NCBI GenBank assembly: GCA_947504705.1 | Contig: CANNIA010000022.1 | Location: 1-56,499 of the forward strand | DNA length: 56,499 nucleotides | Reading direction: 5' to 3' | Origin: Paracoccaceae bacterium | GTDB taxonomy: Bacteria; Pseudomonadota; Alphaproteobacteria; Rhodobacterales; Rhodobacteraceae | Shown: positions 1-52,148 of the stretch, piece after piece | Numbering within the stretch: the stretch's first letter is position 1 | Layout: the number at the start of each line of letters is the position of its first letter | The notes under the pieces: model-generated | What the model saw: the letters and a program-made list of their open reading frames with translations, nothing else | What the model was told of the DNA's origin: nothing | The model's database searches: none | Position numbers and translations under genes: made by a program

Positions 1-112
1 AACGCATGGCCGCTCGGGACTTCGACCGTCAGGTTGCCGAGTTCCAGATCCGTGTCGCCGTCCTGAACGGCTTCACCGCGCTCGGCATTCCCGTCACTGA
101 AGTCGTAGGATG
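1..112 (+). pseudogene. 3' end of IS5-family transposase (runs off left edge)
   Basis: The first 112 bases encode the C-terminal end of an IS5-family (IS903-like) DDE transposase, reading RDFDRQVAEFQIRVAVLNG and ending near GIPVTEVVG before TGA. It is nearly the same as the 3' end of the second IS5 copy near position 52000. Only the last ~35 codons are in the window, so whether this copy is intact cannot be judged. It is followed by a matching terminal inverted repeat. Confidence 0.85.
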
Positions 113-150
113 AGTCTGTCCGGGGAAAGGCGAAGTCCGCCTCTCAATCG

Positions 151-167
151 ATTTGTGCAACAGAGCT
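151..167. repeat. right terminal inverted repeat of the left IS5-family copy
   Basis: The bases ATTTGTGCAACAGAGCT are the reverse complement of the left end of the other IS5 element (GGCTCTGTTGCACAAAT at 50961), apart from the outermost base. They mark the right end of the IS copy whose body lies off the left edge. The IS481-like coding scrap begins immediately after. Confidence 0.8.
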
Positions 168-38401: not shown

Positions 38402-38555
38402 ATCCGCCTCCTTCGCTTTCCCGTTTCATGGCAGTTGGTGCGGGCATTGTCACCCGCCCAATGTCGGCCTTGGATTGCCAAGCGGTTGCATGTCCCTGAT
38501 GCGCCCCTAGATTAGTAGACGCTTTGCCGCCTAACTTTGAGGCTAGGAGGCCGAG

Positions 38556-38831
38556 ATGGGGACGGGCAACTACAGCGACGAGTTCAAGCGGGATGCGGTG
38601 CAGCAGATCACGGTGCGTGGGTATCCGGTTCGGGAGGTTTCGCGGCGCCCGGGGGTGAGTTCGCACTCGCTCTACAAGTGACTTAGGCTGTTCGCCGAGC
38701 CAGCGCCTAAGTTGGGCAGCATTGACCACGAAGCCGAGAACCGACGGTTGAAGCGGGGGCTGGCTCGGGTGACCGAGGAGCGCGACATCTTAAAAAAGGC
38801 AACGGCGTACTTCGCGCGCGAGTCCCAATGA
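38556..38831 (+). pseudogene. IS3-family orfA with in-frame TGA
   Basis: Reads MGTGNYSDEFKRDAVQQITV, then REVS...GVSSHSLYK, TGA at 38679-38681, and LRLFAEPAP...ENRRLKRGLARVTEERDILKKATAYFARESQ. This is the HTH and leucine-zipper region of an IS3 OrfA. The stop falls where the family has Trp (SLYKWL), consistent with TGG to TGA. Codon spacing is otherwise intact, and orfB begins at the overlapping ATG 38828. Confidence 0.85.
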
Positions 38832-39216
38832 AGTACGCTTTCATCCGGGCGCATCAGAACGAGTTCGGTGTCCGGGCCATGTGCCGGGTGCTGCGGGTTC
38901 ACTTCGGTGGCTTCTACGCCTGGCTTAAGGAACCGTTAAGCCGCCGCGCGCAGGACGATGCGCGCCAGACGGAACTGATCCGGCAGGCCTGGTCCGAGAG
39001 CGGCAAGGTCTATGGCTATCGCAAGCTCGCTGACGATCTGCGTGACCAAGGCGAGCACGTTTCGGAGAACCGAGTGGCACGGCTGGCATCAATGGCCGGG
39101 ATTGCCGCGCAGGTTGGCTACAAGCGCCGTCCCGGCCGCTATGGCGGCAAGCCCGCCATCCTCGTGAACAACACCCTGGACCGGCAGTTTGAGGTCGATA
39201 CGCCCGACAGGGTCTG

Positions 39217-39253
39217 CCTATCGGCGATTGAAGGCAATCGCCTGTCGGCAACA
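39217..39253 (+). repeat. palindromic mini-insertion in IS3 orfB
   Basis: The core GGCGATTGAAGGCAATCGCC (39223-39242) is a perfect 8-bp palindrome with AAGG loop, flanked by GCC and GGC at 4-nt distance on each side. The same core with a different loop occurs in the IS5 transposase at 51121-51140. Removing 37 nt restores the IS3 frame (DRV-W-VTDITY). Confidence 0.8.
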
Positions 39254-39515
39254 GGTGACCGACATCACCTACATCAAGACCCATGAGGGCTGGTTGTATC
39301 TTTCGGTCGTGATCGATCTGGTCTCGCGACGCGTGGTCGGCTGGTCCGCCCAGCCCCGCATGACGACTGACCTGGCGCTGCAGGCCTTGCTGGCTGCAGT
39401 CTGGCGACGCAAACCCAAGACCTGAGTGATGATCCATTCCGACCAGGGATCGCAGTTCACCAGCCGCGAGTGGCAGGTGTTCCTTGGCCAGCACAATCTG
39501 GAGGCCAGCATGAGC

Positions 39516-39551
39516 TGCCGAGGGAACTGCCGAGGGAACTGCCGAGGGAAC
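39516..39551 (+). repeat. 12-bp in-frame triplication in IS3 orfB
   Basis: TGCCGAGGGAAC is repeated three times exactly, encoding CRGN-CRGN-CRGN before CHDNAVAESFF. Family members have one RGN at this place, so 24 nt are extra. The frame is kept. Confidence 0.92.
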
Positions 39552-39785
39552 TGCCATGACAATGCGGTGGCCGAAAGCTTCTTCCAACTCTTGAAGCGGG
39601 AACGCATCCGGCGCCGCACCTACCTGACCCGCGAAGCCGCAAGGCAGGACGTCTTCGACTACATCGAGATGTTCTACAACCCGAAGCGTAAGCACACGAA
39701 CAACGGCATGCTGTCGCCCGTTGACTTCGAAACCAGGCAGCAGAAACTGAACGAGGCAGGTGTCTAGGAAACTAGGGGCACCTCA

Positions 39786-40176
39786 GATATCCTTCACGAC
39801 CCGCTTGGCAGGCGCCTTCGTCGTCACGGGTTTCTTCATCATCTTCAACTCCAACTGGGGTAAAGATGAGCCGCAAACCCTCCGCTACGCAATCATGCAA
39901 AACTGTTCCATGGGCGCTGATGGCGGACAGCTTTTTTGGGCCACGGAAAATGAAGCCCTAGGTGACCGTTGGGCCACGGTTGCCAACCGCTCCAAAGCAC
40001 CAATGTCATTTCTACCTGACCTCACGCTCCGCAGGGACGAAAGCCGCGGCAGCCAAGGGCAAGGTAAGGTTCGTAGCATTGCCGTTGACATCTACGGGTG
40101 CCGTCAAGGAAGCCGATTGTGAAACGTCGTATAGCTATGAGCCGGCCGGAGCTTCAGCCGAGTAAAGGCACTTAGT
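39786..40176. other. 391-bp segment after the IS3 element with no supported gene
   Basis: No frame runs through it convincingly. One frame (to 40122) reads KDEPQTLRYAIMQNCSMGADGGQ and a second (39962-40165) ends KEADCETSYSYEPAGASAE. Together they may be a small frameshifted gene whose 5' end was cut by the IS. Base composition is visibly less GC-rich than neighbouring genes. I do not recognise either peptide. The stop at 40163-40165 is 11 bp from the end of the convergent kinase gene. Confidence 0.35.
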
Positions 40177-41799
40177 TTAGCCCTTTGCCAGATCTTCGAA
40201 CAGTCTTGTCACACCTTCTGCCCCGGGATCGTTGTGACCCTTGAGCTTGTCGGGGGCCAGGTAGCTTGCCCGTCCCGCCTTCGCTCTGGTCATCTGGGCA
40301 GTTGCATTGGCCCCCTCCCGTGCGGCCTTCGCGGCGGCTTGGACCCCGTTGGGCAGCGCGGCAAGGGCAGGGGCAAGGGCGTCAATCATCGTGCGGTGGC
40401 CGGGCGCGGCACCACCGACCTGCATGACGCGGTCAAGGCCAGCGCTAAGCGCGCCGATCCACATCTTGCCCGAGGCGCTGGCGTCACCCGCGGCCGCAAA
40501 GAAAATGGCAAGCAAGACCCCGGATGATCCGCCCATCGTCTGGCTGAGCTCCATGCCGATTGCCCGGTAAAGCTGGGTTGAATCGGCCAAGGGTAGACGG
40601 TCAAGCGCGGAAAGAAGCGCACGCGCTGCCCCCGCAAGGGTGCTGCCGGTGTCGCCGTCTCCGGATTTTGCGTCGAGCTGGTTGAGATCGGCTTCGCAGG
40701 CGATCAGCGCCTTGCAGCAGCGATCAATCAGCGCGCGGCGTGAGGGGTGGGCGCTGGGCACCGGTTGGATGGGGGCAAGGCCATCGGGCAGGGGGCGAAT
40801 GGCGACGGCTCCGAACGGGAGGAGGCCGGGCCAGGCATGGGGCCCGACCGGCGCGGCGAGGCTGGTCACTTGGGCGTGGTCGACCGGCAGGAGCGAAACC
40901 GAAAAGCCGTGCATGTCAAGTGAGGTCATGAGGGGGGCAGGGCCGATCATCCATTTGACACGTCCACCCAAGGGCGAGCGGGCGAGTTCCTCGGCTAGAA
41001 CCGACATTTCAAGCGGCGTGGTAGACCCGAGGTTGTTGAGAAGCGCCACATGATCGCCCGCGCCGGTGTGGGGCAAAAGTTTATCGACCACCATCTGCAT
41101 GGCCGAGCGCGCCCCCGAGAAGTCAACCTGTTCGATCCCGGCCTCGCCATGGATGCCAAGGCCCAGTTCGGCCTTTCCTGTGGCGATGCGATCCTCTTTC
41201 GGAGAACCGGGGACACTGCAGGTATCAAGCGACATGCCGATAGAGATCGCACATTGGATCACGGCGCTTGCAGCAGCGGTGATTGTGTCAAGGTCGGCAC
41301 CTGTTTCGGCCATGGCGCCAGCGATCTTGTGAACAAAAAGGGTTCCGGCAACGCCCCGAGCTTGCGGCAGATCGGGAAGGGCCACGTCGTCATCAACGAT
41401 GACCATCGCGACCTTGAGCCCGAAGGCCCGGGCGCGTTCCGCGGCAAGGCCAAAGTTCAGCCGGTCGCCGGTGTAGTTCTTGACAATGAGAAGGCAGCCA
41501 GCCTTGCCCGTGACGGCAAGAATCCCTGCAAGCACGGCATCCACCGAAGGGCTTGCGAAAACGTCACCACAGACCGCAGCCGTAAGCATTCCCTGACCGA
41601 CGAAACCTGCGTGCGAAGGTTCGTGGCCGGAACCACCGCCAGACACCAAGGCAACCTTTTGGCGGTCCCAATCGGTACGGACAACGACCCGGATATGCGG
41701 ATAGCCGTCAAGGCGTGCAAGTTTGCCGCCGCTGGTTCTGAGCAGGCCGTCGATGGCTTCGGTGACGAGGCTCTCGCGGGAGTTCATGAACTGTTTCAT
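40177..41799 (-). CDS. dihydroxyacetone-kinase-family enzyme (DhaK+DhaL fused, ATP-dependent)
   Basis: A 540-aa single-chain DAK kinase. The DhaK part (1-330) has VSGGGSGHEPSHAGFVG and the covalent-substrate His in LGLGIHGEAGIEQ; the DhaL part (~345-540) has the ATP/Mg ligands in DAKSGDGDTGSTLAGAAR. The first ATG (MKQFMNSRESL) is used. It phosphorylates a short ketose such as dihydroxyacetone, or a tetrulose as in the LerK/DerK members. It is the last gene of the ABC operon below, replacing the glycerol kinase that usually accompanies that transporter type, so the imported solute is probably a C3-C4 ketose or polyol. Confidence 0.9.
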   Translation of the reverse strand: MKQFMNSRESLVTEAIDGLLRTSGGKLARLDGYPHIRVVVRTDWDRQKVALVSGGGSGHEPSHAGFVGQGMLTAAVCGDVFASPSVDAVLAGILAVTGKAGCLLIVKNYTGDRLNFGLAAERARAFGLKVAMVIVDDDVALPDLPQARGVAGTLFVHKIAGAMAETGADLDTITAAASAVIQCAISIGMSLDTCSVPGSPKEDRIATGKAELGLGIHGEAGIEQVDFSGARSAMQMVVDKLLPHTGAGDHVALLNNLGSTTPLEMSVLAEELARSPLGGRVKWMIGPAPLMTSLDMHGFSVSLLPVDHAQVTSLAAPVGPHAWPGLLPFGAVAIRPLPDGLAPIQPVPSAHPSRRALIDRCCKALIACEADLNQLDAKSGDGDTGSTLAGAARALLSALDRLPLADSTQLYRAIGMELSQTMGGSSGVLLAIFFAAAGDASASGKMWIGALSAGLDRVMQVGGAAPGHRTMIDALAPALAALPNGVQAAAKAAREGANATAQMTRAKAGRASYLAPDKLKGHNDPGAEGVTRLFEDLAKG

Positions 41800-41811
41800 G
41801 GGGCTGGCCTT

Positions 41812-42804
41812 TCAGATGCGGTTGCCGGTGGCGTCGAACCAAAGGGGGTTATGGGGGCGAATCTTCAAGGTCTCGCCCGGCTTCAAAGCCGTATGCGGCT
41901 CGGTGAGAGTAATCAGGTTGTGGGGCCCCAGGGTCAGGTGAAGACGGGTCTGGTCGCCCAAATGCTCGACCCGGTGGATGGTCGTATCTTGCCCTTCGCC
42001 TACCAGGATGTGTTCGGGGCGTAGGCCGATCTGAGCCGCGTTGTCTGGGGCGCCAGGGAAGGCGCTCGCAGGAAGCAGATTGATGTGTGGCTGGCCAAGG
42101 CGGGCGGCGACATAGGTGGACACCGGGTTTTCGTAGATATCCCGGGGCGTTCCGAACTGAACCAGTTTTCCGCGATCCAGAACGCCGACATGGGTGGCCA
42201 TGGTCATCGCCTCGATCTGGTCGTGGGTGACGTAAAGGAAGGTAGCGGCCATATCGGCATGGATACGCTTCAACTCGATCCGCAGGTCCGCCCGCAGTTT
42301 GGCGTCCAGTGAGGAGAGCGGTTCATCCATCAGGTAAATGCTTGGGTTACGGACAAGGGCACGGCCGATGGAAACCCGCTGCATCTCGCCCCCTGACAGC
42401 GCGGTGGCCTTGTTGTCCAGCTTGTGGGGGATGCGCAGAACCTCGGCCACCTCTTGCACCCGCTTGGCGATCTCGGCTTCCGGCATGGCGATGATGGGAG
42501 AGCGGAGCGGGAAGGCGAGGTTGTCGCGGACAGTGAGGTGGGGATAAAGCGAGTATTGCTGAAAGACCATCGCCACGTCACGTTGGGCGGGAGTGACCTG
42601 CATGACGGAATGGCCGGCGATACGGACATCGCCGTTGTCGGGTTTGTCGAGCCCAGCGATTAGGCGCAGGATGGTGGTCTTTCCCGCCCCCGTTGGGCCA
42701 AGAAGGACGACGAAAGCACCGTCTGGGATCGTCATGCCGACATCCTGCAGCGCCCGGGTGGTGCCGTAGGATTTGCTAAGCCCTGTGAGGATGACTTCAG
42801 CCAT
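41812..42804 (-). CDS. carbohydrate ABC transporter ATPase (MalK/UgpC type), second copy
   Basis: A 330-aa ATPase with Walker A GPTGAGKT, signature LSGGEMQRVSIGRAL, Walker B IYLMDEPLSSLD and a C-terminal TOBE/OB region (GLRPEHILVGEG). ATG 42804 overlaps the end of the preceding ATPase gene by 8 bp. Having two different ATPases in one operon is typical of GlpS/GlpT of rhizobial glycerol transporters, where they heterodimerise. Confidence 0.9.
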   Translation of the reverse strand: MAEVILTGLSKSYGTTRALQDVGMTIPDGAFVVLLGPTGAGKTTILRLIAGLDKPDNGDVRIAGHSVMQVTPAQRDVAMVFQQYSLYPHLTVRDNLAFPLRSPIIAMPEAEIAKRVQEVAEVLRIPHKLDNKATALSGGEMQRVSIGRALVRNPSIYLMDEPLSSLDAKLRADLRIELKRIHADMAATFLYVTHDQIEAMTMATHVGVLDRGKLVQFGTPRDIYENPVSTYVAARLGQPHINLLPASAFPGAPDNAAQIGLRPEHILVGEGQDTTIHRVEHLGDQTRLHLTLGPHNLITLTEPHTALKPGETLKIRPHNPLWFDATGNRI

Positions 42805-43891
42805 GAAAGACCCCGGCATTGGCGGCGGTGCGCAAAGCGCGGCCTGTGGTGGCGTCGAAAAGCGAAAGCCGAGGTGCCGAGAGGTTCAGCCCGGTCAGGT
42901 CGCCGGGTTTGGCGGGAAGGGCAGAGGAGGTGCGCGCCTTCACCGGGCCAAAGGGGGTAGACAGGATGACGATCTGGGTGGTGCCAAGATATTCCACCGC
43001 CTCGATCCGGCCACGCAAAGGGGCCGTGTCAGAAAGGCTGACATGTTCGGGACGAACGCCAAGGACAAGGGCTCCGGCGGCAGGTTCCTGAACCTGGGGC
43101 AGGGTCACAGGAAAGTCGCCAAGGGTGACCGTCTCGGCCCCCTTGGTTGCGTTGCCTTCGAACCGCAGAAAATTCATCGCGGGACTTCCGATGAAGTCGG
43201 CGACAAACAGGGAGGCTGGGTGGTCATAGATGTCCTGCGGTGTGCCGAATTGTTCAACGACGCCATGGTTCATCACCACGATCTTGTCGCCCATCTGCAT
43301 CGCTTCAAGCTGATCATGGGTGACGTAGACGGTGGTGGCGAGCATCCGGTCGTGCAGGGCGCGAAGCTCCTCTGCCATGATCTCGCGGAATTCGGAGTCG
43401 AGCGCACCAAGGGGTTCGTCCATCATAAACGCCTTGGGGTTTCTGACGATGGCGCGACCAAGGGCGACGCGCTGGCGGTCACCGCCTGACAACCCACCCA
43501 CGGGTTTGTCGAGCATGTGGTCGATCCGAAGGATCTTGGCGACCTCGGCCACCTTGCGCTGGATCTCTGCCTTGGGGACGCCTTGTGACGCAAGCGGATA
43601 GGCGATGTTCTTGCGCACGTTCATATGCGGGTAAAGCGCGAACATCTGGAAAACCAGGGCGATGTCGCGCTGGCTGGCAGGGCGCTGGCTGACGTCAACA
43701 CCATCAATCAGGATTTCACCGGAGGTCGGGAGTTCCAGCCCCGCGATCATACGCAGCGTGGTGGTCTTGCCGCAGCCCGACGGCCCAAGCAGCATGAAGA
43801 ACTCGCCATCCTTGATTGTGAAGGACGATCCCTTGACGGCGGTGAACGCGCCGAATTCCTTGCGAAGGTTGCGAATGACGATCTCGGCCAT
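42797..43891 (-). CDS. carbohydrate ABC transporter ATPase (MalK/UgpC type), first copy
   Basis: A 364-aa ATPase: Walker A GPSGCGKT, signature LSGGDRQRVALGRAI, Walker B FMMDEPLGALD, and GVRPEHVSLSD in the C-terminal regulatory domain. The signature has Asp where most have Gln/Glu (SGGD). ATG 43891 (MAEIVIRNLRKEFG) is chosen; the upstream extension overlaps the small membrane protein gene and has no family match. Confidence 0.9.
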   Translation of the reverse strand: MAEIVIRNLRKEFGAFTAVKGSSFTIKDGEFFMLLGPSGCGKTTTLRMIAGLELPTSGEILIDGVDVSQRPASQRDIALVFQMFALYPHMNVRKNIAYPLASQGVPKAEIQRKVAEVAKILRIDHMLDKPVGGLSGGDRQRVALGRAIVRNPKAFMMDEPLGALDSEFREIMAEELRALHDRMLATTVYVTHDQLEAMQMGDKIVVMNHGVVEQFGTPQDIYDHPASLFVADFIGSPAMNFLRFEGNATKGAETVTLGDFPVTLPQVQEPAAGALVLGVRPEHVSLSDTAPLRGRIEAVEYLGTTQIVILSTPFGPVKARTSSALPAKPGDLTGLNLSAPRLSLFDATTGRALRTAANAGVFHG

Positions 43892-43893
43892 GT

Positions 43894-44082
43894 CTATTCC
43901 GGAAAATGGCTGGTGATGATGAACAACACGGTGCCGACAAGGGTCACGACGAAGGACCAGGTGTAGGCCCACAGGAAGAACGGCTGCATCAGCATCACCA
44001 CCCCAAGCGCGATAAGGATGGTGGCCAGCATCTCCCATGGACCACGGCGAAGGCGGCGAAGGCCGTCGAGGAAAGCGGTCAT
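43894..44082 (-). CDS. DUF2160-like small membrane protein of the ABC operon
   Basis: A 62-aa protein with two helices (WEMLATILIALGVVMLMQPFF and WAYTWSFVVTLVGTVLFIITSHF). A DUF2160 protein of this size lies at the same place in the glpSTPQV glycerol-transport operons of rhizobia. It overlaps the upstream permease (ATGA) and ends 2 bp before the ATPase gene. Its role is not known; a transporter accessory subunit is likely. Confidence 0.8.
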   Translation of the reverse strand: MTAFLDGLRRLRRGPWEMLATILIALGVVMLMQPFFLWAYTWSFVVTLVGTVLFIITSHFPE

Positions 44083-45020
44083 TTGCGGACGGCTCCGAAG
44101 GTGATGCCGCGCAGAAGGTGTTTGCGCAGAAGGATAGTGAAAATCATGACTGGAAGCAGGAACAAGGTCGCGCCTGCGGCCACGGCCGGCCAATCCTGTC
44201 CCCCGACCCCGATGATCGTCGGGATGAAGGGCGGCGCGGTCTGGGCGTTGCCGCTCGTGAGCAGCACGGCGAAGGCATATTCGTTCCAGGCAAAGATAAG
44301 ACAGAAGATCGCGGTCGAGGCGATGCCGGTCGCGGCCTGCGGCAGGACGACCTTCCGGAAGGCCTGAAAGCGGGTGTAGCCGTCGATCAGCGCAGCCTCT
44401 TCATATTCGCGCGGGATTTCGTCGATGAACCCCTTCAGAAGCCAGACCGCAAGTGAGATGTTTACCCCGGTATAAAGCAGGATCATGCCCACATGCGTGT
44501 CCGAAAGGCCAAGCTGGCGATACATCAGATAGATCGGGATCGCGACGGCGATGGGGGGCATCATCCGCGTAGAGAGGATGAAAAACAGAAGGTCATCCTT
44601 CAGTGGAACCTTGAAACGCGAGAAGGCGTACGCGGCGAGGGTGCCAAGAAAGATCGACAGCGCCGTCGACCCAAACCCGATGATGACCGAGTTCAGAAAG
44701 CGTTCCCCAAACCGCGAAGGGCCAGTGATGATCGTGCCCTGGCGGCGGGCGATTTCCTCGAACAGCCCGTCGGGGGGTGGCAGGGTGTCAAGCTCGGACA
44801 CGGCGGGCCGGGTGCGGGTGGTAAAAAGGTTGACGTAGCCTTCCACAGTTGGTTCGAAGAACACCTTCGGCGGGTAGGAAATCGAATCCGGGCCGGTCTT
44901 GAAGCTGGTCGAGATGATCCACATCAGCGGCAGCAGCGTGATGATCGTGTAGGCGACGACCAGAAGGCCCGCGACCCATTTAGAGGCCTTTGAAGGTTCG
45001 GTGACGGAATAGGTACCCAT
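44079..45020 (-). CDS. carbohydrate ABC transporter permease (MalG/GlpQ class)
   Basis: A 313-aa permease with six predicted helices and the EAA loop EYEEAALIDGYTRFQAFRKVVLPQA. An unusually long periplasmic segment (TRTRPAVSELDTLPPPDGLFEEIARRQG) lies between helices 1 and 2, as in the GlpQ group. It lies 1 bp from the first permease gene. Confidence 0.9.
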   Translation of the reverse strand: MGTYSVTEPSKASKWVAGLLVVAYTIITLLPLMWIISTSFKTGPDSISYPPKVFFEPTVEGYVNLFTTRTRPAVSELDTLPPPDGLFEEIARRQGTIITGPSRFGERFLNSVIIGFGSTALSIFLGTLAAYAFSRFKVPLKDDLLFFILSTRMMPPIAVAIPIYLMYRQLGLSDTHVGMILLYTGVNISLAVWLLKGFIDEIPREYEEAALIDGYTRFQAFRKVVLPQAATGIASTAIFCLIFAWNEYAFAVLLTSGNAQTAPPFIPTIIGVGGQDWPAVAAGATLFLLPVMIFTILLRKHLLRGITFGAVRK

Positions 45021-45021
45021 C

Positions 45022-45975
45022 CTAGCGCTCCTTCACCTTGTTAAGCGCCTTCACGTAGATCGAGGCGAGGCCAAAGACGGTCACGAAAAGGATGATTGCA
45101 TAGGCCGAGGAATAGCCCGTGCGCCACTTCTCAAATGCCTCGCGCTTGAGGTCGATGGAGGTCAGGAGCGTCTCATCTCCCGGACCGCCCCCGGTCAGTA
45201 GATTGACCATGTCGAACATCTTGAAGTTCTCGATCCCGCGGAAAAGGACGGCCAGCATCAGGAACGGCAGGACCATTGGCACGGTGATCGTCCAGAACTG
45301 CCGCCACTTCGAGGCGCGGTCCACTTCGGCGGCCTCATAGATGTAGTCGGGAATCGAACGCAGCCCCGCAAGGCAAATGAGCATGACAAAGGGCGTCCAC
45401 ATCCAGGTGTCCACGATGATGATCGACCAGGGCGCAAGGCCTCCGGGGCCAAGCATCGAGAAGCTGGCAGCCGGGATCCCGGTGAAGAATTCGACGATGT
45501 AGTTCACCACGCCGATCTGCGGTTGGTACAGGAAGGTCCAGAAGTTGCCGACGACGGCGGGGGACAGCATCATCGGCACGACGAGAAGGGTGGTCAGCAG
45601 GTCGTTGCCCTTGAATTTTCGGTTGATCAGCCAAGCCAGCGTAAAGCCGATGATCACCTGCAGGATGATGGTCCAGATCAGGAAATGCGCCGTGGTCTGC
45701 ATGTTGGACCATGTGCCCTCGTCGGTAAGAATCCGGGCGTAGTTGCGATAGATCGGCTCCACCCACTCGATCTCGCGGTTCGGCTTGTTCGCCGCATAAT
45801 TGGTGAAGGACAGATAGACGGTCCAGATCAGCGGGAAGATGTTGATGGCCAACAAAAGCAGGATCGTGGGGGCCACGAAGATCCAGGCGATGGTGCGATC
45901 CGACAAGCCGCGGACCTTGCGTGCCAGGGATGGCGGGGTAGCCCGCGCAAGTCGGTCGATGGGGGACGTAACCAT
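45022..45975 (-). CDS. carbohydrate ABC transporter permease (MalF/GlpP class)
   Basis: A 317-aa permease: helices begin at IAWIFVAPTILLLLAINIFPLIW, and the EAA loop is YIYEAAEVDRASKWRQFWTITVPM. ATG 45975 (MVTSPIDRL) lies 55 bp after the binding-protein gene; the 99 nt of open frame upstream are mostly intergenic and unlike the family. Confidence 0.9.
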   Translation of the reverse strand: MVTSPIDRLARATPPSLARKVRGLSDRTIAWIFVAPTILLLLAINIFPLIWTVYLSFTNYAANKPNREIEWVEPIYRNYARILTDEGTWSNMQTTAHFLIWTIILQVIIGFTLAWLINRKFKGNDLLTTLLVVPMMLSPAVVGNFWTFLYQPQIGVVNYIVEFFTGIPAASFSMLGPGGLAPWSIIIVDTWMWTPFVMLICLAGLRSIPDYIYEAAEVDRASKWRQFWTITVPMVLPFLMLAVLFRGIENFKMFDMVNLLTGGGPGDETLLTSIDLKREAFEKWRTGYSSAYAIILFVTVFGLASIYVKALNKVKER

Positions 45976-46030
45976 GTCGGGGATCCTGGAAAAGGGGGTG
46001 CGCCGGTAGATCCCGGCGCACCCAGTCGGG

Positions 46031-47353
46031 TCAGAGCTTGCCGTCGTCCATGAAGACTTCGGTCCAGTCGGCAATCATCCCATCCAGCGCTTCTTTTGCC
46101 GTGCCGTTGCCGGCGACGACATAGTCATGAACGCGGGCCTGCGACGCCTGCAGAAGCGAGGCATAGCTTGGTTCTGCCCAGAAGTCCTTCACGATTGCCA
46201 TGCTGTCAAGGAAGGTCTGCGCATAGGGCTGGCTGGTGGCAAAGGACGGATCCTCGACCACGGCCTTCAGGCAAGAGAATCCGCCCATCGACCACCACTT
46301 TTGCTGCACGTCCTGCTGGGCGAACCATTTGACGTAGGCCAGCGCCCCATCCATGTTGTCCGTGTTGGCCACAACCGAGATGCCTTGGCCGCCAAGTTGG
46401 GCGTATTGTTCGCCGTTCGGACCCTTCGGGTTCACCAGATAGCCCGTTTTGCCGCCGCCGACGTTCGGATCAACTTCAAACCCTGGCCAGGTGAAAGCGA
46501 AGTTCATCTGCATCGCGACCTGACCCGATTTGTAGGCGTCGATGCCTTCGCCCATATAGGTGTTCGAGGTGCCAGGGGCGACGCAGCAATCATACAGCGA
46601 CTTGTAGAATTCAAGTCCGGCGATTGCTCCGTCCGAGTTTACAAAGCCTTCCATGTCATAGGGCTTTTCGGGGTTGTCGTACTTGAAGCCGAAGGAATGC
46701 AGGACATCCATCGCCCCCATGGTGATGCCTTCAGACCCACGCTCGGTGTAGATCGAAGCACCATAGACCGTCTTGCCGTCAATATCGCGGCCCTGGAAGA
46801 ATTCGGCGACGTCCTTGAGTTCGGCAAAGGTGGCGGGCGGGGTCAGGTCGCGGCCATACTTTTCTTTGAACGCGGTCTGGATTTCGGGACGTTCAAACCA
46901 GTCCTTGCGGTAGGTCCAGCCCACCACATCGCCAAAGGCGGGCAGCGACCAATAGTTCGGCGTGCCTTTCGGCCATTCGGAATAGCCCGTCACCGTGGCC
47001 GGGACGAAGGCATCCATCGAAATGCCTTCCTTGTCGAAGAAATCGTTCAGCTTGACGTACCAGCCGTTTTCAGCAGCGCCGCCTATCCATTGGCTGTCGC
47101 CGATCATCAGGTCGCATAACTGGCCGCCCGAGTTCAACTCGTTCAGCATGCGGTCGGCAAAGTTGGGCCACGGAACGAACTCGAAGTTCATCTTGGTGCC
47201 AGACTGGGCTTCGAAGTCTTTCGAAAGCTCGACCAGCGCGTTTGCTGGGTCCCATGCGGCCCAGCAGAGGGTCAGTTCTTTGTCCTGCGCACTGGCCTGG
47301 GTCGCCCAGATAAGTGCAGTCGCCGCAGATGCGGCAAGTGTCATCCGTTTCAT
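46031..47353 (-). CDS. carbohydrate ABC transporter substrate-binding protein
   Basis: A 440-aa family-1-type extracellular binding protein. Signal MKRMTLAASAATALIWATQASAQ, then KELTLCWAAWDPANALVELSKDFE. Internal Cys pairs (YDCCVAPG) are notable. First gene of the operon SBP - permease - permease - DUF2160 - ATPase - ATPase - kinase. Start has an AGGA site. A candidate operator lies about 100 bp upstream. The ligand is probably a short polyol or ketose given the kinase. Confidence 0.9.
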   Translation of the reverse strand: MKRMTLAASAATALIWATQASAQDKELTLCWAAWDPANALVELSKDFEAQSGTKMNFEFVPWPNFADRMLNELNSGGQLCDLMIGDSQWIGGAAENGWYVKLNDFFDKEGISMDAFVPATVTGYSEWPKGTPNYWSLPAFGDVVGWTYRKDWFERPEIQTAFKEKYGRDLTPPATFAELKDVAEFFQGRDIDGKTVYGASIYTERGSEGITMGAMDVLHSFGFKYDNPEKPYDMEGFVNSDGAIAGLEFYKSLYDCCVAPGTSNTYMGEGIDAYKSGQVAMQMNFAFTWPGFEVDPNVGGGKTGYLVNPKGPNGEQYAQLGGQGISVVANTDNMDGALAYVKWFAQQDVQQKWWSMGGFSCLKAVVEDPSFATSQPYAQTFLDSMAIVKDFWAEPSYASLLQASQARVHDYVVAGNGTAKEALDGMIADWTEVFMDDGKL

Positions 47354-47452
47354 GCAATCCTCCCGGTTTTGGTGAAATTGGACCCGTGTAGCGCCGGGCC
47401 TTCTTTGGATTGAGGCGACCATAGACTCAGCGTCTGGGGCCTGTAAAGCAAT

Positions 47453-47474
47453 TTTTGAGGAACGTACCTCAAAA
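47453..47474. promoter_or_regulatory. LacI-type operator upstream of the polyol/ketose ABC operon
   Basis: TTTTGAGG-AACGTA-CCTCAAAA is a dyad with perfect 8-bp arms and a near-symmetric centre. It lies between the regulator gene and the binding-protein gene it is expected to control. A related half site occurs at 48623. Confidence 0.75.
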
Positions 47475-47511
47475 TGATCGAACAGCTTGTAGCAATGCGA
47501 TTTTGCGAACC

Positions 47512-48594
47512 TCAGGAGGTGCGATCGATAGGGGCTTGGGCCGAAAAATCGGGTAGCGCGGGAAGGTTTTCACGCAAGACGATTTCGATTCGAATCTGCT
47601 CCTGACCTTCGTCGAGTGGCTGATGGTCAACCTTCGCGCGCAGCACACGCAGGGTGGATCGTGCCAGATGGCCAAGGTTCTGGGTGATGACCGCAGTGAC
47701 CTCGCCGCCGATAAGCGCCGCCCTGACATGCGGGGTAAGTTCGTGGCAGATCACCGTGAGTTTCCCTGAAAGCCCCATATCCGCAAGCACTTGCGTCAAA
47801 GTTCGGTTGCCACCGCCCATGGCATAGATGCCGCAGATCTGGGGCGCGTTCGTAAGTATTTCAGCGACGACCTGACGCAAAGTGACGGGCGAGCCGTGGG
47901 TTTCCAGCGATTGCAGCACTTCAAGACCAGGAAAGTCGCGCTGCATCACCTCGTCAAAGCCGCGCCTGCGTTCGATCATGTCCCGGGCAAGCAGGGATTG
48001 ACCAAGGACCATGACCTGACCAGGCCCACCGCCCAGAAACCGGCCAATCATCACGCCCGCCGTCCGCCCCGCTGCGCGGTTGTCAACGCCGACGAAATGG
48101 TCGCACCCGGCGTTTGGCAGATCCGAGACAAGCGCGACCGTCGGAATCCCCTTGGCGCGCAGGCCGCGCACCGCATCCCGCAAGACCGGCGTTTCCGGTG
48201 CCATCAGCGCAACGCCGACATAATTACGGTCGGACAGGCTGCCAAGCAGGGCAGCCAGCGCATGCGGGTCTTCGGCGGGAAACCGGTAAAGGTGAAGTTC
48301 GGTTCGGCTAGTCGCGGCCATCGATCCCGCCTCGGTCAAAGCTTCCGCAAGGGATTGAAGGAATTGACTTTCCGTGTCCGGCAGGACAGCCGCAACCTTA
48401 TAGCTCCGACCGCGCGCAAGGTTGGCGGCGGTCAAGTCTCGGACATACCCAAGCTTCGAAATCGCCTCGTTTACGGCGCGGACGGTTTTCTCACGCACCC
48501 CGGGCCGCGCGTTAAGAACGCGGTCGACTGTCGCCAGGCTGACCCCGGCCTCACGCGCAATATCGATGACAGTTGGCCGCAAAACGGGCTCCAA
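47512..48594 (-). CDS. LacI-family transcriptional regulator
   Basis: A 360-aa repressor: the N-terminal HTH RPTVIDIAREAGVSLATVDRVLNARPGV, with the hinge region around RDLTAANLARGRSYKVAAVLPD, and a periplasmic-binding-protein-like sensor. The HTH has SLATVDRVLN, a pattern of the LacI branch tied to sugar-alcohol and inositol transporters. It lies in the same direction as, and just upstream of, the ABC operon. Twin palindromic sites at 47453 and 48623 suggest repression of the operon and of itself. Confidence 0.9.
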   Translation of the reverse strand: MEPVLRPTVIDIAREAGVSLATVDRVLNARPGVREKTVRAVNEAISKLGYVRDLTAANLARGRSYKVAAVLPDTESQFLQSLAEALTEAGSMAATSRTELHLYRFPAEDPHALAALLGSLSDRNYVGVALMAPETPVLRDAVRGLRAKGIPTVALVSDLPNAGCDHFVGVDNRAAGRTAGVMIGRFLGGGPGQVMVLGQSLLARDMIERRRGFDEVMQRDFPGLEVLQSLETHGSPVTLRQVVAEILTNAPQICGIYAMGGGNRTLTQVLADMGLSGKLTVICHELTPHVRAALIGGEVTAVITQNLGHLARSTLRVLRAKVDHQPLDEGQEQIRIEIVLRENLPALPDFSAQAPIDRTS

Positions 48595-49093
48595 GTTTTC
48601 TACGTCACTATTCGGTGGAAGCTGAGGTACGTCAATCAGAAATTGCTTTCTCGCAAGCCCGTGAATCGCGATGGCAGCAAAGCCCTACACTGCGTTCGAG
48701 ATCCTCCGCAGGTCCAAGTATGGTCGTGCTCTGGGCATTTTAAGGCGCGGGCGGCGTGTCTTACGGCTGTCCCCCAACGAACAGTTTCCTTCATAAATTG
48801 CCAGTTGCGCGGGTCCTCTTCCCCGCGCTTCATCCAGTACAGTGCCGGGGCCTCCCTATCCAGCTTCTTTGGGCTCGCCGAAATTAGCTATTCCGGGGTT
48901 TTGTCATTCCCAGCAGCTTGGGCAACACGGGACCAATCAATCGGCTGCCGTCTGATCTGAAAGGATCAGATCCATGAAAAACTCTGCCTCCGGGCGGTCC
49001 AAGGTTGGGGGTCGGATCACAGGTTGGGCAGAGTCGGCATCACGGGAATGGAAATTTAGGGGGACAGGTCAGGGCCAAGATGGGCTAGATGCT
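48595..49093. other. 499-bp region between LacI gene and ribokinase; possible IS end remnant
   Basis: The first ~50 bp hold the second LacI-type half site. The rest shows no convincing gene: a 65-codon minus frame (48636-48833) reads MKRGEEDPRNWQFMKETV but has no family I recognise. Near 49047-49076, GGAAATTTAGGGGGACAGGTCA on its complementary strand begins TGACCTGTCCCCC, which resembles the terminal repeat of IS407-group IS3 elements. An eroded IS end at this junction is plausible but not established. Confidence 0.35.
48623..48638. promoter_or_regulatory. second LacI-type half operator, upstream of the LacI gene
   Basis: TGAGGTACGTCAATCA; its complement TGATTGACGTACCTCA shares ACGTACCTCA with the palindrome at 47453. 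It lies 29 bp before the regulator start, a normal place for autoregulation. Confidence 0.55.
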
Positions 49094-49957
49094 TCAGCGA
49101 GTGCTGACGTGGATTGCGGCAGCGTGTGAGGCTGCCTGACATGCGTCGTGTAATGTCTGGCCACTGCCGAGGGCTGCACATAGTGTTCCGATGAAGGCAT
49201 CTCCGGCGCCATGACTGGACACTGCCTGGACCTTTTCGGCGGGTAACGAGAATGCCTCATCATCCGGCGTGACGGCTGCAAGACCTTTGCTGCCTGCGGT
49301 CACGATCACTGCCTCGAACTGGTCGGCGAGCCGTCTGGCCGCGTCGGCGGCGCTGTGCAGGCAGCAAACCGGATCGGCTCCCATCATCTCGGCCTCGACC
49401 GAATTGACAACCAGAATGTCGACCAGCGGGACCAGATCGGTCGAGAGCCCCCGCGCCGGGGCAGCATTCAAGAGCGTGCGGATGCCCCGCGCCCGCGCCT
49501 GCCTTGCGGCCGCGATGTTCAGGGCCTCGGGGACTTCGTTCTGCAGGATCATCAGGCTGACATCTTGCCAAAGCGCGTCGTCATCCAGCCTGTCCGCATT
49601 AGAGTGAAGATTGGCCCCAGAAACGATGGTTGCGGCGTAGTCGCCCGAGCCGTCGAGGATTGCTACACTCATCCCCGAGCCGACATTGGGCAGGGTGACG
49701 ACAAAGGCATCGTCCACTCCCCCGGCCTGCAATGCGCGGCGCAGAAAACTGCCGAAATCGTCGGCCCCGATGGCGCCAAACATCCGGGCGCTGGCACCTG
49801 CGCGGGCAACAGCCACCGCCTGATTGCCACCTTTTCCCCCGAATTTGGGATACCACCGGTTGCCCACCGCCGTTTCGTCCTTGCGGGGCAGATGGTTGGC
49901 TTCGACCATGATGTCATAGTGCAGGCTGCCGACAACTAGGATGGTGGGGCGGGTCAC
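49094..49957 (-). CDS. rbsK: ribokinase RbsK
   Basis: A 287-aa PfkB-family kinase. The sugar-binding GGKGGNQAVAVARAGA and catalytic SSHGAGDAFIGTLCAALG motifs are typical of ribokinase. GTG 49957 (VTRPTILVVGSLHYD) follows AGGAAA. The frame opens further upstream at a TTG, but that would overlap the RpiR gene by 140 bp. Slightly short at the C-terminus but with all catalytic parts. It is the only apparently intact gene of a decayed ribose-type operon. Confidence 0.88.
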   Translation of the reverse strand: MTRPTILVVGSLHYDIMVEANHLPRKDETAVGNRWYPKFGGKGGNQAVAVARAGASARMFGAIGADDFGSFLRRALQAGGVDDAFVVTLPNVGSGMSVAILDGSGDYAATIVSGANLHSNADRLDDDALWQDVSLMILQNEVPEALNIAAARQARARGIRTLLNAAPARGLSTDLVPLVDILVVNSVEAEMMGADPVCCLHSAADAARRLADQFEAVIVTAGSKGLAAVTPDDEAFSLPAEKVQAVSSHGAGDAFIGTLCAALGSGQTLHDACQAASHAAAIHVSTR

Positions 49958-49967
49958 GGGATTTTCC

Positions 49968-50447
49968 TTACAGCTTTCGTTTGGCCTGCACGGCACGCAT
50001 CCTGCGGGCAATCTGGGCCGAGCCGCCAAACCCGTAGAAATCGCGCTGCCGGGCGCGGTGGAGGTGATCTGCGGCGCGGTCGACGGCCTGAAGATCAAGA
50101 ATTGCAAAGGTCTCTTCCAAGGCCCGCATCGCGGTGCGAAACACCTTCTGCACGATCTGGCCAGAGGTGTCGTCGGCCCCTATCTCGGCATGCAGGGCTG
50201 CAGTATCAGACCGGTAGTAGTCCACCAGTCCCTGACGAAACTCACGAAAGCCGGCGAAGCCCTGCTTTTTGGCGACCTTGACCACCATCGCCACGGACAC
50301 ACCCGACCCGACCGCCACGTCGCGCAGCGCCGTCGCCTCGTCAATGTCCCTGCGCGCCAGAATGTCGGCGGCAACCTGCGTTTCGAGTGGTGTCAACGTC
50401 GGCAGTTTCATCCGGATCTGTCCGCCGACCGCGCGCGCGTCACCCAT
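49968..50447 (-). pseudogene. RpiR-family regulator truncated in its SIS domain
   Basis: A 159-aa product. The HTH (TLTPLETQVAADILARRDIDEATALRDVAVGSGVSVAMVVKVAKKQGF) is complete. The SIS domain starts normally (RARQRDFYGFGGSAQIARR) but ends after ~20 residues with MRAVQAKRKL and TAA, where the family continues for about 120 more. The ribokinase gene begins 11 bp later, so a deletion has removed the effector-binding part while keeping the next gene's ribosome-binding site. The product might still bind DNA without sensing sugar phosphate. Confidence 0.75.
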
Positions 50448-50459
50448 GTCTCACCCCAG

Positions 50460-50960
50460 CTAGCCGCTGGTCAACTTGTCGATCAGCATGGCGACAATGA
50501 TGATGATTCCGGTGGCAAGCAACTGGTAGATAGCCTGGACGTTCATCAGGGTAAGCCCGTTGCGAAACGTGCCAAGGATGACGGCCCCAATTGCACATTC
50601 GAAGATTGAGCTACGACCGCCCATCAGGCTGGCCCCGCCAATCGCGGCGGCTGCGATGGCGTACAGCTCCCACAGAGTTCCCAGCGTGGGTTCGGCAGCC
50701 CCCAACCGACCGATCAGGATCATCGCGGCAAAGGTCGCCATCAGGTCCGAGATCATATAGGCGGCAAGTTCGGTCAGCTTTACCGGCACCCCGGCGATCC
50801 GCGCGGCTTCCGGGTTACCACCGACGGCCATGAAGTATTCGCCAAGCGGGGTCTTGTTGAGGATCACTCAGGCGAGCAGCGCCAGAATTCCAACCGCTAT
50901 CACCGGGTTTGGGATACTGGCAAGCGACCCATTGGTCAGGGCGCAAAACCCATCTGGAGC
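50460..50960 (-). pseudogene. ribose-type ABC permease (RbsC class), 5'-truncated with in-frame TGA
   Basis: The C-terminal ~165 codons of an RbsC-type permease. The frame reads SLASIPNPVIAVGILALLA, then TGA (50868-50870), then VILNKTPLGEYFMAVGGNPEAARIAGVPV and the last three helices, ending DKLTSG. The TGA lies where the family usually has Trp. Upstream it is cut by the IS5 element at 50961, losing roughly half of the protein. The open frame from GTG 50867 is not a real gene start. Confidence 0.88.
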
Positions 50961-51108
50961 GGCTCTGTTGCACAAATCCTGTCAGGGATTCATCTTGTGA
51001 ATCCAGTGTTAGCTGGATGTCATGAGCAGACCGAACACACCGACCTACAAGACCCTCAACTGGCCCGCCTACAACAAGGCGCGCTGGCGCCGCGGATCGC
51101 TGATAATC

Positions 51109-51147
51109 CATTGGCCGGTAGGCGATTGTCTTCAATCGCCGTAAGGC
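51109..51147 (+). repeat. palindromic mini-insertion near the start of the IS5 transposase
   Basis: The core GGCGATTGTCTTCAATCGCC (51121-51140) is flanked by GCC and GGC at ~4 nt. Its arms are identical to the IS3 orfB insertion at 39223. Read on the opposite strand, the loop is AAGA against AAGG in IS3, so the two are the same element in opposite orientation. Removing 39 nt restores SLII-WFGSDMAW, the family N-terminal region. Confidence 0.8.
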
Positions 51148-51423
51148 TGGTTCGGTTCTGACATGGCATGGGCGGCGCAGCCGACGGGCAAGCGTGGGCG
51201 ACCGCCCGTCTACACCGACGCCGCCTTCCAAGCCTGCCTGACGATGAAGGTGCTCTTCGGCATGGCCCTGCGGCAGACGACAGGGTTTGTCGAGAGCCTG
51301 CTGCGGTTGATCGGTCTGGACTGGGATGTGCCGGACTTCAGCACGCCCAGCCGTCGCCAGAAGACCCTTGCCGTGAACATTCCGCATCGGGGGTCGCTGG
51401 GTCCGCTGCATCTCTTGATCGAC

Positions 51424-51465
51424 ATCGAGCCGGTAAGCGCCACCGGATCGAGCGAACCGGCGAGG
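51424..51465 (+). repeat. in-frame expansion directly after the first catalytic Asp of the IS5 transposase
   Basis: Family proteins read LLIDSTGIKVEGEGEW. Here LLID is followed by IEPVSATGSSEPAR and then GIKVEGEGEW: 14 residues in place of two, a net gain of 36 nt. The segment contains ATCGAGC twice (51424-51430 and 51447-51453) and GCCGGT...ACCGGC ends (51429-51434, 51456-51461). Confidence 0.7.
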
Positions 51466-51675
51466 GGGATCAAGGTGGAGGGAGAAGGCGAGTGGAACGC
51501 CCGCAAGCATAGCGGTCCCAAGCGCCGTGTCTGGCGCAAGGTCCATCTCGGGATCGACGAGCAAACACTGGAGATCAGGGCCGTCGAGATCACCAGCAGC
51601 GACATAGGCGACGCGCCCATGTTGCCGGAGTTGCTCAGCCAGATCCCTGCTGATCAGGACATTGCAAGCGTCTCA

Positions 51676-51711
51676 GCCGACGGGGCCGCCGATGGGGCCG
51701 CCGACGGGGCC
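51676..51711 (+). repeat. 12-bp in-frame triplication in the IS5 transposase
   Basis: GCCGACGGGGCC three times (the middle copy has one C-to-T change), encoding ADGA-ADGA-ADGA before HDTRKCHDA. Family members have one ADGA followed by YDTRK. The repeated block contains the second catalytic Asp. Confidence 0.92.
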
Positions 51712-51873
51712 CACGACACGCGCAAATGCCACGATGCCATCGCCGAACGCGGGGTCGCCGCCGTCATTCCACCCCGAAAGAACGCCAGGTCGTGGAAGAC
51801 AGAAACGGCAGGTGCGGTCGCGTACAACGAGGCCCTGCGGGCGTCGAAATACCTCGGACGGGCACTCTGGCGA

Positions 51874-51917
51874 CCCCTCTCGGCAGCATCCTTTGGATGC
51901 GCCTGCCGGGCAATGGA
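51874..51917 (+). repeat. 44-nt hairpin insertion before the catalytic Glu of the IS5 transposase
   Basis: CGGCA-GCATCC-TTT-GGATGC-(GCC)-TGCCG (51881-51908) is an 11-bp stem with a 3-nt bulge. It interrupts LGRALWR/WSGYHRR and shifts the frame by two. Its sequence differs from the GGCGATTG palindrome, though its size is similar. Confidence 0.75.
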
Positions 51918-52148
51918 TGGAGCGGATATCACCGCCGACGTCGCGCAGAGACGAAAGTGCACTGCGTCAAACTCCTGGGTCAACGCCTCATGGCGCGGGA
52001 CTTCGACCGTCAGGTCGCTGAGTTCCAGGTGCGTGTGGCCGTTCTGAACGGCTACACCGCGCTCGGCATCCCCGTCAGGAAGGTCATGCGATAGGTCCGT
52101 CCGGGAGAAGGGGCAGTCCGGCCATCAGCCAATTTGCGCAGCAGAGCC

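What the first reader, a model, noticed from the sequence alone, without database searches (positions are those of the whole stretch)
38828..52093. All six DDE motifs of two unrelated dead transposases carry a lesion at or within about 35 nt
IS3 orfB: a 37-nt insertion ends 7 nt before the first Asp codon (39261), a TGA lies 16 nt before the second Asp (39441), and a 24-nt repeat expansion ends 22 nt before the Glu (39573). IS5: a net 36-nt expansion directly follows the first Asp (51421), a 24-nt expansion duplicates the second Asp itself (51676-51711), and a 44-nt insertion ends 31 nt before the Glu (51948). The sequence between these points is well preserved, including in frame. Random decay would scatter lesions through ~900 coding bases. 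The pattern suggests either a process that targets catalytic codons of transposases or selection among repeated inactivating events. Intact family sequence is recalled, so insertion edges are approximate.
Basis: partly seen in the sequence, partly recalled or inferred. Interest (0 to 1): 0.8.

Follow-up and report, generated by a model that had tools for sequence, protein, structure and literature searches.

The report
Tiny mobile hairpins inside transposase genes
Three of the six lesions that looked aimed at the catalytic codons of two dead transposases are copies of two families of roughly 40-letter hairpin elements that, in this group of bacteria, turn up largely inside transposase genes of many unrelated kinds, usually away from the catalytic codons.

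Summary
The six lesions are real, but the list is incomplete and the catalytic-codon reading does not hold. Family A's hairpin shows strong covariation (85.6% paired; slid controls at most 44.8%). The two 24-nt expansions are 12-nt units in about three copies, as slippage would give; the sixth lesion is a TGA. In genus-mates 45 of 58 window-type A elements lie in or beside transposase genes (IS3, IS5, IS21, IS66, IS256, IS630). In 400 kb of this genome the only two clear hits lie inside transposase genes (IS3- and IS30-type). Insertion sites recur across species, but only 8 of 24 distinct IS3/IS5 sites lie within 12 residues of a catalytic residue (P 0.12). No Y1 (RAYT) transposase was found in 16 genus genomes. 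Best reading: previously undescribed (in my searches) very small mobile hairpins with a marked bias to transposase genes; mobiliser and cause of the bias unknown. A sister subtype is mostly outside transposases.

The parts
38503..39786 (+). dead IS3-family element, orfA and orfB interrupted
38679..38681 (+). TGA in orfA where intact relatives have TGG (not in the finding)
39217..39253 (+). family B palindromic element, 37 nt, clean insertion, 7 nt before the D1 codon
39423..39425 (+). TGA before the D2 codon (point change)
39515..39555 (+). 12-nt tandem array, 3.4 copies, net +24 nt, upstream of the Glu codon; also in the copy on contig C35
50961..52148 (+). dead IS5-family element
51109..51147 (-). 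family B palindromic element, 39 nt, far from D/D/E, not in the finding; brings a TAA in frame; shared with L062
51425..51465 (+). family A palindromic element: model match 51427-51463 plus two paired bases at each end, directly after the D1 codon; net +36 nt; shared with L062
51676..51711 (+). 12-nt tandem array, 3 copies, net +24 nt, repeating the D2 Asp codon; absent from L062
51875..51915 (+). family B palindromic element, 41 nt, clean insertion before the Glu codon; same site as in L065 of another genus

Best explanation
The two elements are decaying IS copies hit repeatedly by non-autonomous mobile hairpins of about 40 nt, of two families. Family B (conserved ends around a variable stem-loop) inserts between two bases with no loss and no target duplication. 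Family A (two complementary end bases, GAGCC.., variable stem, loop CGCCAYTGGTYCRAG, stem, ..GGCGA, two end bases; about 39-43 nt) replaces 4-6 target bases if its end pairs are counted as its own. A trans-acting activity not identified here inserts them, at sites that recur in a given transposase gene. Shown: the elements exist; family A's fold covaries; ends are sharp; empty sites exist in relatives; homologous sites are hit in different species; window-type elements are over-represented in transposase genes of unrelated families. Inferred: movement as a single-stranded DNA or RNA hairpin, and an insertion preference rather than retention alone. The two 24-nt expansions are most likely replication slippage; the TGAs are point mutations. 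Nearness to D, D and E follows from where some recurrent sites lie.
For: Inserts and models. Fold of A: 9 of 9 pairs with two-sided changes, 151 such cells, 85.6% paired against 22.8-44.8% with partners slid, 60 distinct rows, alignment fitted to the model. Ends of A: the two flanking bases pair in 55 and 56 of 58 GAG-type hits (shuffle means 28 and 27), the third in 4 of 58. Empty sites: B loses no base in 5 of 5; A loses 0, 1 or 2 flank bases in 6, 7 and 1 of 14, before its four end bases are counted. Same site, different species: IS5 after D1 (WIN, L063, L074, L251), IS5 before E (WIN, L065), IS3 frameshift site (L039, L042, L204, L253), IS3 residue 249-252 in two IS3 lineages. Host genes: 45 of 58 GAG-type A hits and 12 of 14 B hits in or beside transposases by Pfam, tblastn or flank similarity. 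Control: in 400 kb of this genome the only hits with E below 0.001 are one A and one B; the A lies inside an rve/HTH_21 (IS3-type) frame, the B inside an IS30-type gene whose relative lacks about 40 nt there.
Against: A wider A subtype (GTCGCC..GGCGAC) is mostly not beside transposases: 3 of 58 pattern hits, against 15 of 39 for the GAG type and 5 of 24 others, with a limited transposase query set. Of the 58 GAG-type hits, 3 are in GTA or phage-tail genes, 1 in a ribonucleotide reductase gene, 8 by genes not identified as transposases (two of them next to an acyltransferase-like gene; four in a hypothetical gene), 1 apparently intergenic. No mobiliser was found; no Y1 transposase in 16 of 16 genus genomes. 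Genome scans score only the best 150 first-look places, so copy numbers are lower bounds; the control found two copies they had missed. The amount of transposase DNA in the control is itself a lower bound: 1,160 nt with the query set, 1,634 nt with two control frames added, and the IS30 gene was not in that set. Many hits share loci, so counts are not independent. Family B's model rests on 8 sequences.
Confidence: 0.78

Rival explanations
1. A process aimed at the catalytic codons of transposases, for example a host defence that disables D, D and E.
For: All six motifs here have a lesion within 35 nt (P 0.0024-0.009 per gene, limit set afterwards); several other inserts abut D1, D2 or E.
Against: 8 of 24 distinct sites near, coverage about 0.215, P 0.12; one insert in this IS5 and most sites in relatives lie elsewhere; the elements also occur in phage-tail, reductase and intergenic places.
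Confidence: 0.05
2. Retention only: elements insert everywhere, are purged from working genes, and are seen in dead IS copies because these are free to decay.
For: Several host copies carry 2-5 inserts; net lengths show no frame preference (7, 6, 6 by remainder mod 3 of 19).
Against: Non-coding DNA should then carry many copies; in the 400-kb control, where about 80 kb lies outside GC3-biased open frames by a crude measure, no hit with E below 0.001 lies outside transposase genes. Non-IS pseudogenes were not counted.
Confidence: 0.2
3. Inherited variants of IS lineages rather than repeated insertion: an ancestral IS with inserts spread by transposition.
For: WIN and L062 share two inserts at different loci; WIN, L062 and L063 share one at D1 with nearly the same letters; third-codon-position bias persists between them.
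Against: L091 without the D1 insert has fewer differences from WIN (120 of 933) than L063 with it (143 of 916); WIN and L065 share the site before E with different stems while L091 and L063 lack it. An exact D1-insert pattern was found in 1 of 394 family genomes, the window's own, though it misses variants such as L074 and L251.
Confidence: 0.12
4. REP sequences moved by a RAYT (Y1 tyrosine transposase).
For: Short palindromes with conserved ends; an apparently intergenic subtype exists.
Against: No PF01797 match in 16 of 16 genus genomes; few copies found per genome; location inside ORFs.
Confidence: 0.04

Closest known systems
Small dispersed repeats (SDR) of cyanobacteria (Elhai et al. 2008, Genome Res 18:1484; not held; features recalled; citation seen in PMC3116915)
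   Same: recalled: very short elements (21-27 nt) with a shared hairpin kept by compensatory changes, confined to one clade, no known enzyme, often inside other mobile elements
   Different: about 40 nt; sequences not compared; here largely in transposase ORFs; family A replaces target bases
Rickettsia palindromic elements (RPE)
   Same: palindromic elements inside protein-coding genes of Alphaproteobacteria (passages of PMC3733652, and PMC10969869)
   Different: about 150 bp and in frame in unrelated metabolic genes; here about 40 nt, no frame preference, largely in transposases
REP / REPIN with RAYT
   Same: imperfect palindromes of about 20-60 bp (passages of PMC3116915)
   Different: described as extragenic, hundreds per genome and RAYT-linked; not so for the window-type elements
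MITEs
   Same: short non-autonomous elements (passages of PMC10969869)
   Different: 70-300 bp (passage of PMC3733652), with direct repeats in the example; here about 40 nt and no duplication

Membership tests
SDR-like very small mobile elements | hairpin conserved by compensatory changes | tested here: met
   family A; family B, 8 sequences, 7 of 12 pairs with a two-sided change
SDR-like very small mobile elements | filled and empty sites | tested here: met
   between species or genera; not within one species
SDR-like very small mobile elements | sequence relation to cyanobacterial SDRs | not tested
   their sequences were not at hand
REP/RAYT | Y1 transposase in the genome | tested here: not met
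   0 of 16 genus genomes, own included
REP/RAYT | extragenic location | tested here: not met
   for GAG-type A and for B; the GTCGCC subtype may differ
REP/RAYT | hundreds of copies per genome | tested here: inconclusive
   few found, but scans score only 150 candidates; 2 in 400 kb of control
RPE | in-frame insertion in protein-coding genes | tested here: not met
   19 net lengths, 7/6/6 by remainder mod 3
MITE | target-site duplication | tested here: not met
Known RNA family | Rfam match at the element | tested here: not met
   12 loci with A elements, E up to 0.1; one tRNA elsewhere in one locus; family B loci and the window not searched

The most novel reading that the evidence does not exclude
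Two unrelated families of about 40-nt hairpins form a transposase-gene-targeting system in Rhodobacterales: an unidentified activity inserts them preferentially into transposase ORFs of many IS families, making them parasites of, or a host brake on, insertion sequences, and among the smallest mobile elements known.
Probability: 0.25. Interest if true: 0.85.

Novelty: new variant of a known kind. Interest (0 to 1): 0.6.

Why it matters
If the bias to transposase genes reflects insertion preference, these would be tiny elements that live on and disable other mobile DNA, with recurrent sites that make the mechanism directly testable. Even if it is only retention, two families of very small hairpins with sharp ends and clean empty sites give a tractable case for how sub-50-nt elements move without a known enzyme.

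Tried and rejected
Exact palindrome core pattern found too few copies; covariance models were used instead. Rfam: no family at the elements in 12 loci. Y1/RAYT driver: none in 16 genus genomes. A widespread living IS5 lineage with the D1 insert: not supported, 1 of 394 family genomes by an exact pattern that misses variants. Translational skipping of the insert: not favoured; net gain and element length differ by 0 to 2 nt between copies, so skipping one fixed stretch would restore the frame only in some. Tandem arrays of unit 9-30 nt are uncommon (4 in 400 kb of control; the same scan saw the IS3 array but not the slightly imperfect IS5 one, which one search found). A family-B pattern in viral contigs: 0. 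Placing the window by plasmid similarity gave only low-coverage matches.

Literature: five stretches of the core sequences in 0 held papers; no description of these elements seen in the listings; passages read of PMC2884548, PMC3116915, PMC12306157, PMC3733652 and PMC10969869 only.

Rows dropped and limits: 3 of the 78 rows were left out (one outside the family, two partial). Three control rows with E above 0.5 for family A were not counted. Assignments rest partly on flank-similarity clusters. Site lists were typed by hand; they include one-sided matches and the inserts of L070 and L081, which are neither A nor B, and leave out weak one-sided IS3 matches (L236, L255). The IS/intergenic sizes in the last line were assumed and are not used. 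In one search two open frames of the control itself were added as queries; one search repeats it without them. The 19 net lengths were typed. Pfam matches for three own-genome hosts were below curated cut-offs; searches then matched them to IS30, IS3 and IS481 transposases.

Full report
What was checked. The window is contig C22 of a 3.72 Mb draft in 87 contigs. The records closest to its IS copies, and nearly all named carriers of family A, are Rhodobacterales; no call named the genus. IS3 (38503-39786) and IS5 (50961-52148) were aligned with relatives from other genomes and plasmids. All six lesions of the finding exist. Two more were missed: a 39-nt insertion in the IS5 N-terminal part (51109-51147) and a TGA in IS3 orfA (38679-38681). 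The third IS5 insertion is 41 nt, not 44.

What the insertions are. Three of the four larger ones are one family (B): 39217-39253, 51109-51147 and 51875-51915. The fourth, after the first IS5 Asp, is family A. Relatives without them show empty sites. Other copies of the same genes, in other species, carry further A and B inserts, five in one IS3 copy (L040) and three in one IS5 copy (L063). Covariance models found 3 A and 6 B elements in this genome; a 400-kb sample gave one A and one B more, 11 in all. Eight of the 11 lie in transposase genes: the four here, an IS3-type frame (C1:135015), an IS30-type gene (C1:133381), an IS481-type gene (C1:229064) and an IS3-type gene (C19:61527). Two lie near IS3 pieces (C72) or by a phage-tail gene (C19:58588), and one is in an intergenic-type context (C4:4342).

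Structure. On 60 distinct family-A sequences all nine stem pairs show two-sided changes that keep pairing; 85.6% of cells pair against 22.8-44.8% with partners slid. The alignment was fitted to the model, which leans towards the structure, but the margin is wide. The two bases outside each end of the model pair in 55 and 56 of 58 GAG-type hits and the third in 4 of 58, which marks the ends. B adds its length exactly in 5 of 5 cases; A, counted with its four end bases, replaces 4 to 6 target bases in 14 of 14.

Where they sit. Of 75 A hits kept, 58 are of the window's GAG type. By Pfam, tblastn or flank similarity 45 of these are in or beside transposase genes of IS3/rve, IS5 (two groups), IS21, IS66, IS256 and IS630 type; 3 are in GTA or phage-tail genes, 1 in a ribonucleotide reductase gene, 8 by genes not identified as transposases, 1 apparently intergenic. 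Of 14 B hits, 10 are in or abut a transposase match, an eleventh is in an IS3-type gene and a twelfth shares its flanks; the other two are C72 and C19:58588. In the control the only two hits with E below 0.001 both lie inside transposase genes; for the IS30 case the best relative matches on both sides of the element and is about 40 nt shorter. The transposase DNA found there is 1.2 to 1.6 kb, a lower bound from a limited query set.

Are catalytic codons the target? Some recurrent sites abut them: IS5 after D1 in several species; IS3 before D1; D2 in other IS3-like copies, read from the flanking codons; and before E. Others are the IS3 frameshift site, the orfB start, and IS5 residues near 19, 29, 70-75, 145, 280 and 292. 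Of 13 distinct IS5 sites 4 lie within 12 residues of D, D or E (coverage 0.24, P 0.39); of 11 IS3 sites 4 (coverage 0.19, P 0.14); combined 8 of 24, P 0.12. The list is hand-made, with the limits told under Tried and rejected.

Order of events. L062, in another species of the genus and with other flanks, has the same 39-nt and 36-nt inserts as the window's IS5 but not the 24-nt expansion; its match ends before the site near E. The 24-nt expansion at D2 therefore fell on a gene already damaged, so selection for inactivation does not explain it. The damaged copy appears to have moved, presumably with transposase supplied in trans. The IS3 24-nt expansion is also in a second copy (C35) whose match stops at the IS end. 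One observation does not fit simply: the 26 differences between WIN and L062 still favour third codon positions (7, 5, 14).

How it may work. No Y1 transposase was found in 16 genus genomes, and no Rfam family matched the elements in 12 loci. The conserved fold and a sense-strand excess for A (46 to 22, P 0.005, rows not independent) suggest a hairpin of RNA or single-stranded DNA as intermediate; this is inference. The closest kind known to me is the cyanobacterial SDR elements (recalled; paper not held). The bold reading, that an unidentified activity aims these hairpins at transposase genes, is not excluded; the rival that they merely survive best there needs a count in other pseudogenes.

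Noticed in passing
L106:1501-1537 (G006:C180): A family-A element lies in an open frame of a ribonucleotide reductase gene, recalling the in-frame Rickettsia palindromic elements.
   Followed up: partly
L142, L157, L138; viral contigs L322, L325, L328: Elements also lie in or near GTA_TIM and phage-tail genes; three viral contigs have a GTA-like match about 535 nt away.
   Followed up: no
L259:276-312, L281:1121-1157: IS5 copies whose left flank looks like the residue-72 site and whose right flank is the D1 site: apparent deletion between two family-A elements in one gene.
   Followed up: partly
contig G013:C541, 2321-2362 (in L062 and L126): A family-B element sits at the junction of an IS5 fragment and an IS66 tnpB fragment.
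   Followed up: no
L081 (43-nt insert) and L070 (61-nt insert): Further hairpin-like inserts in IS5 relatives that match neither family A nor B; the 61-nt one is next to D2.
   Followed up: no
L112, L113, L114, L116, L161, L168, L171, L173, L174, L176: A family-A subtype outside the GAG type, mostly in a G-rich/C-rich, terminator-like context that looks intergenic.
   Followed up: partly
L154, L155, L156, L169: The same family-A element with the same flanks in four places of three species, in a gene known only as hypothetical.
   Followed up: partly
window 1-166: The contig begins in an IS5 end about 80% like the dead one; several other contigs also end in such sequence, which suggests multi-copy relatives.
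   Followed up: no
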